Assembly: GCA_028281635.1 (NCBI GenBank)
Contig: JANQJM010000056.1
Location: 1-39,987, forward strand
Length of the DNA: 39,987 bases
Direction of reading: 5' to 3'
Source: Pseudomonadales bacterium
GTDB taxonomy: Bacteria; Pseudomonadota; Gammaproteobacteria; Pseudomonadales; Pseudohongiellaceae
Under the pieces are notes generated by a model. That model was given only the letters and a program-made list of their open reading frames with translations, ran no database searches and was not told where the DNA came from. Below are positions 2 to 4,860 of this stretch, piece after piece. Numbering within the stretch: the stretch's first letter is position 1; each line of letters begins with the position of its first letter. The position numbers were made by a program, and so were the translations under genes.

Positions 2-523
2 CATATTGATGGCGATATCAACTACGACGCCTGGAACAAACTCAATGGCATTGGATACCCGGAATCCATCTACCATCCTCCCTATGCGAACTATGGTCCC
101 CGTTGGCAGAGTGATCGCATTATCGATCAGCATCCCTCAGTTGCTGATCAACATTACACATCGTTGGTGCCAGCAATAGATGCTGACAACAACGATCTGG
201 CGGCCTCCACAATCCTACCGCCACTCACCAGGGTGCCATTAGCGACTTTCGTGTCCTGGAATTTGCGTGCACCCAGTGTCGGTGCGGAGAAAGCTATGGC
301 TTCTTTGGCTGGTGGTTACATACCGTTCGCCAAAGACCTCGATGCCGTCATTGCCAACAATGACACGCGCAGCTCAATCGCCGGTTTGTATGCCAGTTTC
401 GATGATTACCTGGAGAAGTATGAAGCGGCTACTGACGAGTTGATTGCGGGAGGCTATTTGCTGCCCGAGTTCAAAGGCGACTATATGGCGATTGCCAGGC
501 AAAACGAGAATCTGTTCCAGTAG
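2..523 (+). CDS. C-terminal part of an alpha/beta hydrolase domain protein (PF20091-like), cut by window start
   Basis: The reading frame is open from the first bases of the window to a TAG at 521-523, so only about 173 C-terminal residues are present. The segment VPLATFVSWNLRAP, followed by a GGYIPFAK motif and a closing helix ending in LLPEF, matches what I remember of the C-terminus of the Abhydrolase_10 family (PF20091). Those are mostly exported hydrolases of unknown substrate. The catalytic serine region lies upstream of the window and cannot be checked. The stop codon is only 6 nt before the proposed left edge of the integron cassette array, so this gene is probably the left chromosomal flank and not a cassette. 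No terminator is visible after it. Confidence 0.75.
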   Translation, partial: HIDGDINYDAWNKLNGIGYPESIYHPPYANYGPRWQSDRIIDQHPSVADQHYTSLVPAIDADNNDLAASTILPPLTRVPLATFVSWNLRAPSVGAEKAMASLAGGYIPFAKDLDAVIANNDTRSSIAGLYASFDDYLEKYEAATDELIAGGYLLPEFKGDYMAIARQNENLFQ

Positions 524-609
524 ATTTGATTATGTGTGCAGATAGGATTGGGATTATAGATCTGAAGAATGCACCAGGCCGATCTTTAGTCTCTCTCAGA
601 AGCCGTCTA

Positions 610-638
610 TTGACATAGTAATTCTACTTGCCTATTTC
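610..638 (+). promoter_or_regulatory. Candidate sigma70 promoter ahead of cassette 1 gene
   Basis: A perfect -35 hexamer TTGACA (610-615) is followed after exactly 17 bp by TATTTC (633-638), a poor -10 box matching only three consensus positions. It sits in the otherwise empty 234 bp before the lipoprotein gene. It would drive cassette 1, and possibly the array, with an untranslated leader of about 110 nt. Prediction from two hexamers only. Confidence 0.3.
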
Positions 639-757
639 GCGGCGTGGTGTGGTTGTGTAAGGCAAGTGGCCTTTAGAACGAGCGGCCTGCCATAGAATCA
701 AAAGTACCTCTAGATAACGTTGACGGCTCTATGTGTGCGCGTGAGGCTGAAAGTCAG

Positions 758-1117
758 GTGAAACACATCATTTACATACTTCTTGGCATTGGCATTGCTG
801 CGTGCACGAAGCAAGATGATGTGCTTGCGCCATACCAGAACGAAACAGTATCTACAATCGAATCTGCTGTAGAAGACATCCGAACGTTTGAGGATCTTGA
901 AGTCTATCTACGAAATCGATACGGGGAAATACAACCATTACCCGCCATTTGGGAAGCCACATCTTCAAACATCGACGAAAGCGGCAAAGGTCCATACAGA
1001 TTCAGACTTCGAGATGGTTCAGAAATCTCCATCGACGGTATCTATACACAAGAAACAGGGCCAATCATCGATCCGAATTTTGATTTCAGTACTTTACCTA
1101 AGCTGGAGGTAGAGTAA
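758..1117 (+). CDS. Small putative lipoprotein, cassette 1
   Basis: I choose the GTG at 758 over the ATG at 731 because it gives a normal lipoprotein signal peptide: a basic start (KH), a short hydrophobic stretch and a lipobox ending GIAAC at about residue 16. The mature part is about 104 residues, acidic, with no cysteine other than the lipidated one and no motif I recognise. The central part (GPYRFRLRDGSEISIDGIY) suggests a small beta-rich domain. The gene ends 21 nt before attC1, so it is the cargo of the first integron cassette. It was not recognised as any known family, and cassette genes often have few relatives. The lipid anchor is inferred from the lipobox alone. Confidence 0.65.
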   Translation: MKHIIYILLGIGIAACTKQDDVLAPYQNETVSTIESAVEDIRTFEDLEVYLRNRYGEIQPLPAIWEATSSNIDESGKGPYRFRLRDGSEISIDGIYTQETGPIIDPNFDFSTLPKLEVE

Positions 1118-1138
1118 GTGAATTTATGAACTCAATGG

Positions 1139-1203
1139 CACATAACAATCAAATCAATTTGGGCCGCAGCTTATGCTGCGCCCATTATTCAGGGCGTTAT
1201 GTG
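1139..1203 (+). repeat. attC site 1 (integron recombination site)
   Basis: The outer arms CACATAAC (1139-1146) and GTTATGTG (1196-1203) are perfectly complementary. Inside lies the stretch AATCAAATCAA shared with the other sites, a central hairpin with CGCAGC/GCTGCG arms, and the shared CATTATTCAGGGC before the right core. Cleavage by an integron integrase would fall between G1196 and T1197. The site ends cassette 1. Confidence 0.9.
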
Positions 1204-1241
1204 TTTCGAAGCATCAGACTATCAGCAGAAGGAAGACCAAA

Positions 1242-1970
1242 GTGTATAAATCGAAAAAGACAGTAATCGGAAGCGCTTTTTCACTGCTGGCTGTCGCCTT
1301 CTTGGCTTTTTCCCAAAGCCATGTCATTGCTAGCGTGGCAATTGGTGTTTCAGACTATATCGAAGTCGCTCCTAACTTATATGTTGATCCTCTATTCTCA
1401 TCTGATGAGCAGGTATCAATTGCCACTCTTGCTAGTGAAGCAAAAGAACGAGTTGAGTCTATATACGGTCAAATGGTCTCCACTCCAAATATTATAGTTT
1501 CTTCTACAGAAAAAAGATCGGCCAGATTTTTGCCCGGTCCGCTACCTCCAGGTGCAACATATAGCCTGCCTTGGGGCCAATACATTCCAATAGCTCCCAA
1601 TGGAAATGACATTAATGTCATGGCTCATGAGCTCGTTCATGCGGAGGTATATCATCGATTGGGATTCATCAAATCCCTACGAAGCTTACCTGTATGGTTC
1701 AACGAAGGCGTGGCCATGCAAGTGGACTACCGGCAAGAGAAAGCATGGACATACATAATGGAAGGGCATGAGCTACCATCAGTATCATCTCTTGAAACTA
1801 CCCAGCAATTCTTTTCCGGAGATAGAGCGCTAAACTACGCGGCCGCTAAAGTAGAGGTCAGTGCATGGCTCTCCTCACCTAGTTACTCGAATCTTTATGA
1901 TTTTATTGCCGAAATCAGAAGTGGGAAGGATTTTTACGAATTATATGGGGATGTGGACACGCGGTACTGA
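1242..1970 (+). CDS. Secreted zinc-metalloprotease-like protein (HExxH, gluzincin type), cassette 2
   Basis: I choose the GTG at 1242. It has an AAGGAAG ribosome site about 6 nt upstream and starts a signal peptide (KSKK, then a hydrophobic run ending near ASVA). The longer frame would begin inside attC1. The 242-residue protein contains AHELVHAEVYHRLG (zinc-binding HELVH, residues 129-133) and, 22 residues after the second histidine, WFNEG, whose glutamate (about 155) would be the third zinc ligand. This is the HExxH-E arrangement of gluzincins (peptidase MA clan). It predicts an exported metallopeptidase-like protein; the substrate is unknown. It lies between attC1 and attC2 and is the cargo of cassette 2. 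Proteolytic activity is inferred from the motif only. Confidence 0.8.
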   Translation: MYKSKKTVIGSAFSLLAVAFLAFSQSHVIASVAIGVSDYIEVAPNLYVDPLFSSDEQVSIATLASEAKERVESIYGQMVSTPNIIVSSTEKRSARFLPGPLPPGATYSLPWGQYIPIAPNGNDINVMAHELVHAEVYHRLGFIKSLRSLPVWFNEGVAMQVDYRQEKAWTYIMEGHELPSVSSLETTQQFFSGDRALNYAAAKVEVSAWLSSPSYSNLYDFIAEIRSGKDFYELYGDVDTRY

Positions 1971-2001
1971 GGGTATACAGTATTGTTTGAAAACCGACCA
2001 A

Positions 2002-2066
2002 CACATAACAATCAAATCAACCAAGGACTGCGCTAACGCGCAGCCCATTGTTCAGGGCGTTACGTG
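2002..2066 (+). repeat. attC site 2
   Basis: The left core CACATAAC (2002-2009, extended to AACACATAAC from 2000) matches the start of cassette 2 (1196-1205) over ten complementary bases. The right core GTTACGTG starts at 2059. The centre is a hairpin with CTGCGC/GCGCAG arms and a TAAC loop. It shares AATCAAATCAA and TTCAGGGC with attC1. The cleavage point is between 2059 and 2060. Confidence 0.9.
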
Positions 2067-2102
2067 CACCTACCTTTATCAATATCCTTAAGTTATAAGC
2101 CA

Positions 2103-2774
2103 ATGAGATTATTGACAGTGCCAAAGGTCGGGTTCGCATGTTTCATCATGTGGAATTCTCATTCTGTATTAGCTCAAGATCCTCCAGACGACTACAATCC
2201 CTTTTCAGTCGTGGACGATGGTAATTATCTTCGCAGAGGCTTACCCTCCAATTCAGGCGCTCAGCGATCTATCCCAGAAGAGAGAGGCTGCGGAGCAGAC
2301 ACGCTTGCTTGGGGTAACAATGAATATGAAGAAGTGCCTGGGATTCAATGGGCTTACATCAAAAATTATTGCGACAACGGTTTAGAAATATCTATCTGGA
2401 CAGACTTCACAACCACTCTATTTGGTTCCAATAGCGAAGCTCGAAGCCAAGGTCGCGAAATAACTAGTAATGATGGGATTCAACATTCCGATTTCAATGG
2501 AGATCGAGTAGTAAGCGGTTATATAGAAGCAAATGCGAGGGTGGAGTACAGTTTTTCAATTGATACCGATGGCACAGGTATAGGTACGATCAATGGTATC
2601 GAATACGATTTACAAGAAGGGACATTGTTCCTTGTGGCTACCCATGGAAGCACTTTAGAAATACGTCAGGTTAACTATAATCTGGCGAGCATTAGCGCAA
2701 GAGATATCACATTATTAGCAACCAGGCACTCCGAAATCACTAAATTTTTCGGTGAGTTTCATGCCAGTTATTAG
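2103..2774 (+). CDS. Exported protein of unknown function, cassette 3
   Basis: The ATG at 2103 starts a plausible signal peptide (MRLLTVPK, then a hydrophobic stretch ending at VLAQ, with mature DPPDDYNP). The frame is open further upstream to a GTG inside attC2, which is less likely as a start because it would destroy the signal peptide. The mature protein of about 197 residues has two cysteines (GCGAD and NYCDNG) that could form a periplasmic disulfide, and a beta-rich middle (SIDTDGTGIGTINGIEY). I do not recognise the family. The ribosome site is weak. It is followed by attC3 and is therefore the cargo of cassette 3. Three consecutive cassettes in this array encode exported proteins. Confidence 0.7.
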   Translation: MRLLTVPKVGFACFIMWNSHSVLAQDPPDDYNPFSVVDDGNYLRRGLPSNSGAQRSIPEERGCGADTLAWGNNEYEEVPGIQWAYIKNYCDNGLEISIWTDFTTTLFGSNSEARSQGREITSNDGIQHSDFNGDRVVSGYIEANARVEYSFSIDTDGTGIGTINGIEYDLQEGTLFLVATHGSTLEIRQVNYNLASISARDITLLATRHSEITKFFGEFHASY

Positions 2775-2800
2775 TAAGTGGCAATCGTCAGACATATGGC

Positions 2801-2863
2801 ACGTAACAAACAAATCAATCAAGGACAGGGCTAACACCCTGTCCATTATTCAGGGCGTTACGC
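2801..2863 (+). repeat. attC site 3
   Basis: The left core GCACGTAAC (2799-2807) pairs with the start of cassette 3 (GTTACGTGC at 2059). The right core GTTACGC is at 2857-2863. The central hairpin has arms GGACAGGG/CCCTGTCC around CTAACA. It shares CAAATCAA and CATTATTCAGGGC with sites 1 and 2. The cleavage point is between 2857 and 2858. Confidence 0.9.
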
Positions 2864-2878
2864 ATACGAGTGCCTTCG

Positions 2879-3397
2879 ATGAACGACTACATTATTTTTC
2901 TTAAGGGGATTAACGTTGGAGGGAACAATATCCTTCCCATGAAAAATCTCAAGGCGCTGCTTTCTAATCACGGTTTTGAAAATGTTCGAACGTATATTCA
3001 ATCGGGCAATATCTTGGCGAAGGGTGCCAGAGTGACTTCGAAAGAAATTAGCTCGCTTATTGAAGCCGAATACGGCTTTTCTCCTGAGACTCTGGTTTTG
3101 GATAAGAAGGAATTTCTGGAAGCGATTGATAACAACCCATTCAATTCTTCAGATGGAAAAATTGTTCACTTTTATTTCTGCGCGACTTCTCCTAGCCCTG
3201 ATAAAGAGAAGATCGATAAGTTTAAAGCCGATTCAGAAGAGTATGTTATCCGAGGAAATGTATTCTATTTGCACGCGCCAGACGGAATAGGAAAATCCAA
3301 GTTGGTATCAAACATAGAATCGTGCCTAAACACTACGGCTACAGGCAGGAATTTAAATACTGTTCGAAAAATGCAAGGATTGGCAAATGATGCATAA
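2879..3397 (+). CDS. DUF1697 family protein, cassette 4
   Basis: The N-terminus FLKGINVGGNNILPM, the motif FENVRTYIQSGNIL (residues 34-47) and the overall length of about 172 residues are characteristic of DUF1697 (PF08002), a small cytoplasmic family of unknown function with a ferredoxin-like fold. The ATG at 2879 is preferred to a GTG at 2870 because family members begin almost directly with the YIIFLKGIN strand. No signal peptide is present. The TAA stop (3395-3397) lies inside the left core of attC4, so the gene fills its cassette completely. DUF1697 genes are normally single chromosomal genes; here one is carried as integron cargo. Confidence 0.88.
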   Translation: MNDYIIFLKGINVGGNNILPMKNLKALLSNHGFENVRTYIQSGNILAKGARVTSKEISSLIEAEYGFSPETLVLDKKEFLEAIDNNPFNSSDGKIVHFYFCATSPSPDKEKIDKFKADSEEYVIRGNVFYLHAPDGIGKSKLVSNIESCLNTTATGRNLNTVRKMQGLANDA

Positions 3398-3458
3398 CCA
3401 ACAAATCAATAATGGGCTCAGCACTGCGTGCTGAGCCCATTATTAATAAGCGTTAACC
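3392..3458 (+). repeat. attC site 4
   Basis: The left core GCATAAC (3392-3398) nearly matches the complement of the cassette 4 start (GTTACGC, one mismatch). The right core GTTAACC is at 3452-3458. The central hairpin is the longest of the five: arms AATGGGCTCAGCA/TGCTGAGCCCATT, 13 bp around CTGCG. The L' segment (ATTATTAATAAGC) diverges from CATTATTCAGGGC of the others. Confidence 0.88.
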
Positions 3459-3463
3459 ACACA

Positions 3464-3880
3464 GTGAATAGCAAGTTCAGTGTAAAAAGAAGAGTTCGAT
3501 TTGGGGACTGTGACCCTGGCGGTGTGATCTATACTCCAAACATAAGCTTCTATGTGGTGGAGGCTATTCGAAGCTTTATGGATAAATTGCTGGAAGCCCC
3601 AATGGAGCGAACCATTCTTGATATGGGCATACTACCCCCGGCAAAGGCTTTTTCAGTTGAATTTGTTTCTTTTTTGAAATGGGACGATGAAATCGAAATT
3701 GCTGTTAGTGTTAAGAATATTGGAACCAGCTCGTTTACGTTTTCTTTGGTCGGATATTGTGGAGATGATCATGTCTTCTCATCAGAATTTACTCAAGTAT
3801 GCGTAGATCCTGAAACTAAACGACCAACTCCAATTCCCAATATTCTTAGAGGTAAACTCGCCGGGCATTTAGATGGTTAA
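3464..3880 (+). CDS. Hotdog-fold acyl-CoA thioesterase (4HBT family), cassette 5
   Basis: The N-terminal motif RRVRFGDCDPGGVIYTPN (residues 9-26 from the GTG at 3464) is the 4-hydroxybenzoyl-CoA thioesterase signature. The second Asp of DCD is the usual catalytic residue, and the next motif FYVVEAIRSFMDK fits the long hotdog helix. The later strands (SVEFVSFLKWDDEIEIAVSV) also fit. At about 138 residues the length is normal. It probably hydrolyses an acyl-CoA in the cytoplasm; the substrate is unknown. The GTG at 3464 lies only 12 nt after the cassette start, without a clear ribosome site, so initiation may depend on read-through from upstream cassettes. The TAA stop (3878-3880) overlaps the left core of attC5. 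Confidence 0.85.
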   Translation: MNSKFSVKRRVRFGDCDPGGVIYTPNISFYVVEAIRSFMDKLLEAPMERTILDMGILPPAKAFSVEFVSFLKWDDEIEIAVSVKNIGTSSFTFSLVGYCGDDHVFSSEFTQVCVDPETKRPTPIPNILRGKLAGHLDG

Positions 3881-3939
3881 CAAACAAATCAACCAGGGAC
3901 AGGGACGCAGCTAACGCTGCTCTCATTATTCACAGCTTT
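3875..3939 (+). repeat. attC site 5, degenerate right end (array terminus)
   Basis: The left core GGTTAAC (3875-3881) pairs exactly with the start of cassette 5 (GTTAACC at 3452). CAAATCAACCA and a hairpin with GCAGC/GCTGC arms follow, then CATTATTCACAGC. Where the other sites have GTT, this one has CTTTCT, so the right core has lost its conserved G. The site should be a poor recombination target. It borders the stop codon of the convergent gene to the right. Confidence 0.78.
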
Positions 3940-4860
3940 CTATTGCTGTGGCGGTGCGTAGTGATAAAGCGACGCACGATCGTCTTCAGGTACGAAGTAA
4001 AAGCTGCCTCGTTCATTGTCTGAATAATGAAAGTAGAAAGGATTGCGCGCCAGAAACTCGTAGCTCGGCGCTGTTCCCGTAACGCGGATTTTGTGCAGGA
4101 TTTCCAGGCTTTCTAAATCCACCAACTCGATGCCTCCGATAGTCAGTAGATGGGTATTGTCGATTGGCCGACTTCGAATACCACTGCAGGCCATTGTCGT
4201 AGAAGTAATTAGCTGACAATCCTGATAGTCGACGTCGGAACCAGACTTGAGTTTGCTATCCACATTCTCTGCCTGATATTTGCCCTCTACCTCCTGCCAA
4301 CGATAGAGCGTGCGCGAAGCCCAGCTCATTCCATAGAGGTTGCCATCTGCAGGATTGCGTAGGAGACTGCCAAGATGATCGTCGAATCGAAACAAGCCTT
4401 CGGCATCCAGTGTCTCCGGATCGATTCTGTATACAATAGAATGGCTGTTAGGGCGATACTCTGCCACGGAAATCCAAAGATGTTCTCCGTCGTAGTCCAT
4501 GCCCCCGGGATGATACATGCTGCCTTCACCCAGGGTGGTGCTGGCCAATAACTCGCCATTTATGTCGAATTTGAACAGATGACCCACACCGCTGCCAGTG
4601 GCTCGGTCATAAGCTGCATCGTCGTCATCGATTCGCTCGGGCCTGGATTGGGTTTCCACCGAGGTCATATAAAAGACATCACCAACACGTGTCATGCCTT
4701 GCGGATGGTGGACGGCAAACTGCAGAGGAGTGGCTTGCAGCAAACTCCAATTAGTATCGGAATTGAGGCTGAGCAAAAAGTTGAGTGCAGGATCGTCTGC
4801 TTCCTGCGCAAACAGCGCAGAAGTGAATAGAGCAACAAGCGGGGCATACGAAAATCGCAT
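3940..4860 (-). CDS. Exported propeller-like protein, DUF6454-like
   Basis: The 306-residue protein has an N-terminal signal peptide (MRFSYAPLVALFTSALFAQ). Its body contains HHPQGMTRVGDVFYMTSVE, YDRATGSGVGHLFKFD, YHPGGMDYDGEHLWISVAEY and VDYQDCQ, which agree with my memory of the DUF6454 family, a secreted or periplasmic beta-propeller-like family of unknown function. No catalytic motif is visible. The stop codon (3940-3942) sits at the terminal attC of the cassette array and the last residues (PPQQ) are close to the junction, so the array inserted at or just beyond the 3' end of this gene. The ribosome site is weak (GGGGC before the ATG). The next upstream gene on this strand (start 5351) ends 35 nt before it. 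Confidence 0.72.
   Translation of the reverse strand: MRFSYAPLVALFTSALFAQEADDPALNFLLSLNSDTNWSLLQATPLQFAVHHPQGMTRVGDVFYMTSVETQSRPERIDDDDAAYDRATGSGVGHLFKFDINGELLASTTLGEGSMYHPGGMDYDGEHLWISVAEYRPNSHSIVYRIDPETLDAEGLFRFDDHLGSLLRNPADGNLYGMSWASRTLYRWQEVEGKYQAENVDSKLKSGSDVDYQDCQLITSTTMACSGIRSRPIDNTHLLTIGGIELVDLESLEILHKIRVTGTAPSYEFLARNPFYFHYSDNERGSFYFVPEDDRASLYHYAPPQQ

What the first reader, a model, noticed from the sequence alone, without database searches (positions are those of the whole stretch)
530..3936. Five-cassette integron array without an integrase, inserted between two convergent genes
Five attC sites with shared inner segments (CAAATCAA near the left, CATTATTCAGGGC near the right in most) separate five plus-strand genes. 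The matching of each cassette's start with its own attC left end is exact or nearly so for cassettes 2-5. No IntI-like gene flanks the array. Its left end is 6 nt after the hydrolase stop and its right end meets the stop of the convergent gene, which suggests insertion of cassettes at a secondary site in the gap between two 3' ends. Such CALIN arrays are known; insertion at a convergent 3'-end gap is the notable part.
Basis: partly seen in the sequence, partly recalled or inferred. Interest (0 to 1): 0.75.

Follow-up and report, generated by a model that had tools for sequence, protein, structure and literature searches.

The report
Integrase-less cassette array between facing genes
In a bacterium related to Pseudohongiella, five gene cassettes sit, with no integrase gene found, between two facing genes that are direct neighbours in four related species; the array is likely the remnant of a satellite integron that an integrase encoded elsewhere would have filled.

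Summary
The array is real. A covariance model built without any window sequence finds exactly five attC sites in 40 kb: four at E<=1.5e-6 and a degenerate fifth at 0.028. In four congeners the flanking Abhydrolase_10 and DUF6454 genes are convergent neighbours, stops 1-32 nt apart, against 3416 nt here. No integron integrase was found in the assembly (86% complete).

Two corrections. Cassette 1 starts near 729, not 530: its homologue in L121 begins exactly at an attI-like crossover. The 205-nt leader 524-728 shows no significant attC, attI or intI. And the array is not alone: dispersed arrays of this attC type recur in the genus. At 21 of 31 attI-like sites an array starts with no room for an integrase and no IntI match in the fetched stretch; this genome's other array is one. 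Convergent gaps hold 17 of 37 resolved arrays, against 18% of 217 ordinary gene pairs.

Most likely it is a decayed satellite platform, filled by an integrase now lost or encoded elsewhere. It is a new member of a known kind (CALIN); the genus-wide satellite system is the more novel part and is only inferred for this window.

The parts
2..523 (+). 3' part of an Abhydrolase_10 (PF20091) gene, left flank; cut by the contig start
   Evidence: Pfam E 2.4e-10; convergent neighbour of DUF6454 in L002, L003, L004, L006
524..728 (.).
   Evidence: no significant attC, no significant attI module, no intI relic, only 16-41-nt matches in 84 genus genomes
729..1196 (+). cassette 1; gene 731-1117 of unknown function with a lipoprotein-like start
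   Evidence: homologues inside other arrays: L099 46%, L121 38%; start placed by alignment to the L121 junction
1139..1203 (+). attC1
   Evidence: E 2.7e-11 with the independent model
1197..2059 (+). cassette 2; gene 1242-1970, exported peptidase-like protein with HELVH motif
   Evidence: weak NCBIfam match to the flagellinolysin HExxH region, E 5e-4, far below cut-off; 63% homologue in the array of L067
2002..2065 (+). attC2
   Evidence: E 1.9e-8
2060..2857 (+). cassette 3; gene about 2103-2774, exported-looking protein of unknown function
   Evidence: no family match
2800..2864 (+). attC3
   Evidence: E 6.3e-8
2858..3452 (+). cassette 4; gene 2879-3397, DUF1697
   Evidence: Pfam E 2e-34; 43% homologue in the stretch L079, about 4 kb from its nearest detected attC
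3391..3459 (+). attC4
   Evidence: E 1.5e-6; near-perfect hairpin, z -7.2
3453..3936 (+). cassette 5; gene about 3464-3880, 4HBT_2 thioesterase
   Evidence: Pfam E 2e-12
3873..3937 (+). attC5, degenerate: left half and stem kept, R' box lost
   Evidence: E 0.028, 0.0012 with R1
3940..4860 (-). DUF6454 gene, convergent right flank
   Evidence: Pfam E 2.3e-68

Best explanation
This is an integrase-less array of five gene cassettes in the gap between two convergent genes, and it is likely the decayed remnant of a satellite integron platform that an integrase lost or encoded elsewhere would have filled. Shown: the attC sites, the cassettes, the empty gap in four congeners, no integrase found in the assembly, and other arrays of the same attC type, in this genome and genus, that start at an attI-like motif with no integrase beside it. 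Inferred: that an IntI integrase inserted the cassettes through folded bottom-strand attC sites; that the motif is a working attI with a promoter; that such a module once stood in or near the 205-nt leader and decayed; and that a convergent gap keeps such insertions because it breaks neither gene nor promoter.
For: Five attC sites found by a model without window sequences. Stop-to-stop gaps of 32, 32, 1 and 18 nt in four congeners against 3416 nt. Same attC type next to intact intI in congeners. G000's second array (contig C248 = L055) has the attI-like motif and a stretch before it that aligns in register with L114 (72.5% over 80 nt, E 1.5e-6), no IntI match, and a convergent gap. 21 of 31 attI-like sites lie 171-655 nt from the upstream called gene, with no IntI match in their stretch. 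IntI relics remain left of the arrays of L061, L098, L116 and L120, and a broken intI in L093. In G012, whose one integrase match is elsewhere, the first cassette behind the attI-like site of L064 is 97.8% identical over 321 nt to an internal cassette of the intI-bearing array L063; the sequences part at G|TT. Cassettes 1 and 2 have relatives inside other arrays. Array GC is 0.432 against 0.508 for the contig to its right.
Against: No significant attI module in the window: nhmmer at maximum sensitivity gives no hit at E<=10; attI PWM no better than resampled sequence, 1608 of 2000 at least as high; summed module alignments 113 of 330 background windows at least as high, best single score 55 of 330. 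One module alone (L102) scored at 1 of 330, the best of about 30 tried. No IntI relic. Weak attC-model matches at 690-734 (E 4.4 and 9.3) end where an attC before cassette 1 should end, which favours the rival of a gene-less first cassette; an ungapped test there is not significant (589 of 4986 positions as high). The assembly is 86% complete, so an intI could be missing from it.
Confidence: 0.5

Rival explanations
1. The cassettes entered the convergent gap directly at a non-attI secondary (attG-type) site through an integrase acting in trans; the leader 530-728 would be a gene-less first cassette whose attC has decayed.
For: TTATGTG at 530-536 matches the expected R' end of a cassette and lies 6 nt after the hydrolase stop. 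No significant attI module in the window. The weak attC-model matches at 690-734 end at the start of cassette 1. attG insertion was shown in E. coli, according to a passage citing Loot et al. 2024; that paper itself is not held.
Against: Cassette 1 begins near 729 by homology, so 530 is at best the start of a gene-less cassette. The attC-like match at 690-734 is far from significant (E 4.4 and 9.3; 589 of 4986). The base before TTATGTG is A, where an IntI junction should leave G (G|TTRRRY, passage); L099 also has A there.
Confidence: 0.33
2. A complete integron with its own integrase stood at this site, and intI plus attI were deleted.
For: Broken or relic intI beside five other arrays; [quoted passage not shown]
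Against: No intI or significant attI trace in the 205 nt; four congeners show an empty gap, not an integron.
Confidence: 0.12
3. Assembly artefact or an ordinary operon, not cassettes.
For: The genome is a draft of 257 contigs.
Against: Both flanks are neighbours in four congeners; cassette starts pair with their own attC; homologues of cassettes 1 and 2 lie in other arrays.
Confidence: 0.03

Closest known systems
[quoted passage not shown] IntegronFinder 2.0, PMC9024848, passages read)
   Same: several same-strand attC sites, each with a small gene, and no intI nearby
   Different: lies between two convergent stops; many sister arrays in the genus carry an attI-like module
Dispersed CALINs of Xanthomonas (PMC12444791, passages read)
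   Same: about half the genomes have CALINs away from the intI locus, at seven recurrent loci
   Different: the passages I saw do not mention an attI beside them or a convergent-gap bias; attI was not among the terms I searched there
CALIN with its own attI in Shewanella prophage M16-3 (PMC9892861, passages read)
   Same: an array without intI that begins at an attI; its printed attI resembles the motif here outside the searched core (14 of 18 nt at the best site; 0 of 2000 shuffles reach that)
   Different: one prophage there; here several loci per genome in a genus, and the window array itself has no significant attI
attG secondary sites (Loot et al. 2024, seen only as cited in other papers)
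   Same: cassette entry outside attI
   Different: many arrays here start at an attI-like motif; no attG consensus was tested

Membership tests
CALIN | at least two attC sites clustered on one strand | tested here: met
   five sites
CALIN | no integron integrase next to the array | tested here: met
   no TIGR02249 match in the assembly, no IntI tblastn match in the window; the left side could be checked for 523 nt only
CALIN | attC sites recombine as folded bottom strands | not testable with these tools
   bottom strands fold better than shuffles (z -2.4 to -7.2), but activity needs an assay
Complete integron | intI gene | tested here: not met
Complete integron | attI with cassette promoter | tested here: not met
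   the attI-like motif is present at the genome's second array, L055
Satellite attI platform (proposed here) | attI-like module directly before cassette 1 without intI | tested here: not met
   absent or decayed in the window; 21 of 31 attI-like sites in the fetched genus stretches fit
attG insertion | junction at an attG consensus | not tested

The most novel reading that the evidence does not exclude
Pseudohongiella genomes run a multi-site integron: one integrase serves, in trans, a set of satellite platforms that consist only of a cassette promoter and an attI, scattered through the chromosome with a bias for convergent gaps; the window array is one such platform after decay of its attI.
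Probability: 0.33. Interest if true: 0.68.

Novelty: new member of a known kind. Interest (0 to 1): 0.45.

Why it matters
In one survey CALINs are as common as complete integrons (2961 against 2760; [quoted passage not shown] This genus shows what look like successive stages side by side: full integrons, broken integrases, attI-like modules without integrase, a module relic with no cassettes (L166), arrays whose cassettes differ between species, and empty sites. That makes two rival origins testable: decay of complete integrons, and filling of satellite attI sites in trans. The convergent-gap bias suggests where a genome tolerates cassette arrays.

Tried and rejected
A degenerate attI at window 684-706, seen by eye (CATAGAATCAAAAG against CATAGAATACAAATG of L063/L064), was tested by PWM, local alignment and nhmmer and not supported. 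An attC ending at cassette 1 was tested: weak model matches at 690-734, E 4.4 and 9.3, end at the right place, but an ungapped test is not significant. Rfam had no match in the window. The leader has no informative homologue. The right-flank gene of L055 belongs to a large paralogous family, and the left-flank gene was not found beside its relatives, so no empty-site test was possible there. The 948-nt antisense genes in L058, L092 and L100, at first taken for possible integrases, are IS110-family transposases. Cassettes 3 and 5 found no relative in the stretches held. Literature: three papers hold both 'Pseudohongiella' and 'integron', seen as listings only; by title and start of abstract none is about integrons of that genus. 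I saw no paper on attI-bearing satellite arrays across a genus; most subscription papers are not held.

Limits of the count: gene calls come from my own codon-based script. Loci were picked by hand from the listings, the first of which was cut; several listed arrays (for example on contigs of G059, G081 and G075) were not fetched. Of 81 array rows, 39 were unresolved, many at contig ends; some rows are parts of one array split over two stretches. From the 42 resolved I removed five by hand: L087 and L093 (integrase or broken integrase beside the array), L119 and L120 (same locus as L097 and L116) and one of L106/L124 (same downstream flank). Unreduced, it is 18 of 42, p 1.6e-4; without the window, 16 of 36, p 2.2e-4. 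An unseen last cassette would be read as a tandem host gene, which works against the convergent claim; an unseen first cassette would be read as a codirectional upstream gene, which works for it. With a module in the locus and no integrase, 8 of 19 rows resolved are convergent, p 0.013. The 8 of 18 counted L101, unresolved, and left out L061 and L068.

Full report
What is there. The window is one whole contig (C143) of G000, a draft of 4.24 Mb in 257 contigs, 86% complete. The search tool puts G000 in the same genus as G025, whose 6,586,598-base chromosome has the same length as a record titled uncultured Pseudohongiella sp.; the genus name rests on that. Between the stop of an Abhydrolase_10 gene (523) and the stop of a convergent DUF6454 gene (3940) lie five + strand genes separated by five attC-like sites. 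Model R1 had three window sites in its training set, so its E-values for those three are inflated. R3 had none and gives 2.7e-11, 1.9e-8, 6.3e-8, 1.5e-6 and 0.028, with no other match up to E 10 in 40 kb. The two single-contig genomes G103 and G104 give no R1 match at E<=0.1. Bottom strands of all five sites fold better than shuffles, z -2.4 to -7.2.

Boundaries. Starts of cassettes 2-5 are complementary to the left end of their own attC over 8-10 nt, with one mismatch in cassette 4. The cassette-1 protein has relatives in other stretches (L099 46%, L121 38%, L073 32%, L010/L063 28%); those of L099 and L121 lie inside arrays. In L121 that cassette starts exactly at an attI-like crossover, with the gene's ATG inside the R' box; the equivalent window base is about 729. 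So 524-728 is a 205-nt leader. It has no significant attC or attI module, no integrase relic, and only 16-41-nt matches in 84 genus genomes. Two results lean the other way: one module alone, L102, aligns to it at a level reached by 1 of 330 background windows, though the best of all modules is reached by 55 of 330; and weak attC-model matches at 690-734 (E 4.4 and 9.3) end where an attC before cassette 1 should end. attC5 keeps its left half and stem but not its R' box; the 3' ends of several sister arrays are likewise 5'-half attC sites.

Empty site. Of 58 genomes searched, five other than G000 have a near-full-length DUF6454 relative; four of these have the hydrolase gene convergent beside it. 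Stops there are 32, 32, 1 and 18 nt apart, against 3416 nt here. This also argues against a chimeric contig.

The genus. Integrase family TIGR02249 is found at E<=1e-20 in 21 of 84 genus genomes, in 11 above the curated cut-off, and not in G000. attC of this type occur in 11 of 13 chosen genomes at E<=0.1 and in 21 of 70 others at E<=0.001, in many at several loci. I fetched 80 stretches, typed attC sites and called genes with a codon-based script. At the left end of many arrays stands the motif CATATACAAATG|TTATG or a close variant, beside intact integrases (L060, L063, L080, L087, L090) and far from any. I read it as the attI. Outside the searched core it resembles the attI printed for a Shewanella prophage integron, 14 of 18 nt at the best site, while 0 of 2000 shuffles reach that (the sequence is from passages of PMC9892861). 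Pairs of sites share up to 325 nt of sequence before the crossover, which could hold the cassette promoter; that reading is by eye. A profile trained on all 31 sites gives 37 hits in 81 sequences: 30 are training sites, seven are in stretches outside the training set, and none is in the window. Of the seven, those of L061, L089 and L123 end at the cassette-1 start inferred separately; that of L082 lies away from its array and may be false.

Integrase-less attI arrays. Of 31 motif sites, 21 lie only 171-655 nt from the upstream called gene, which leaves no room for the ~960-nt integrase gene, and no IntI match occurs in those stretches. G000's second array, on contig C248, is one of them. Relics of intI remain at L061, L098, L116 and L120, and a broken copy at L093, so decay of complete integrons accounts for some arrays. 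Trans filling is suggested by G012 (97% complete, four contigs, one integrase match): the cassette directly behind the attI-like site of L064 is 97.8% identical over 321 nt to an internal cassette of the integrase-bearing array L063, where it follows an attC; the two sequences part at G|TT. In G025 a 523-nt stretch is shared at 92.5% between a satellite array and the main array. At the L095 locus, relatives show no cassettes (L167, L168), a module relic without intact attI or cassettes (L166), and a different gene with an attC-like end (L175).

Convergent gaps. For 42 of 81 array rows both flanking host genes could be assigned: 18 convergent, 17 tandem, 4 tandem with the array inverted, 3 divergent. 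After removing by hand two arrays with an integrase or its remains beside them and three repeats of a flank, 17 of 37 are convergent. Among 217 ordinary adjacent gene pairs with a gap, in the same stretches, 18% are convergent; binomial p is 9e-5. Among rows with a module and no integrase it is 8 of 19, p 0.013. Whether this is targeting or survival is open; survival is enough, since a convergent gap normally holds no promoter.

Reading. The window array is a CALIN. Given its sister array, the leader and the genus pattern, I think it a decayed satellite platform (0.5), with secondary-site entry behind a gene-less first cassette as the main rival (0.33). CALINs at several loci are known in Xanthomonas (PMC12444791, passages), and a CALIN with its own attI in a Shewanella prophage (PMC9892861, passages), so neither is new in kind. 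Many attI-like platforms per genome and the convergent bias are not in the passages and listings I saw.

Noticed in passing
L055 (G000 contig C248) 897-5203: Second integrase-less array of the same genome: attI-like motif, four attC or half attC sites, convergent gap. One cassette encodes an AAA_15 ATPase with weak similarity to MADS3 and retron Eco8 effector ATPases, well below family cut-offs.
   Followed up: partly
L058 3646-4593, L092 1520-2467, L100 716-1663: IS110-family transposase genes lie antisense inside or beside arrays in three genomes. That IS1111-type relatives target attC is recalled from memory.
   Followed up: partly
L084 4173-4249 and L114 7806-7882: Two genomes have an array beside the 3' end of a tRNA-Pro(cgg) gene, in opposite orientations relative to it.
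   Followed up: no
L075 2250-2334: An attC site whose left spacer is expanded into a run of AACA repeats.
   Followed up: no
3' ends of L055, L082, L084, L089, L093, L095, L123 and others: Arrays often end in a 5'-half attC. In about a dozen cases, counted by hand, the last attC or half starts some 37-77 nt from the end of the facing gene, where its terminator might lie.
   Followed up: partly
window 1242-1970: Cassette 2 encodes an exported-looking protein with HELVH, with a 63% relative in the array of L067.
   Followed up: partly
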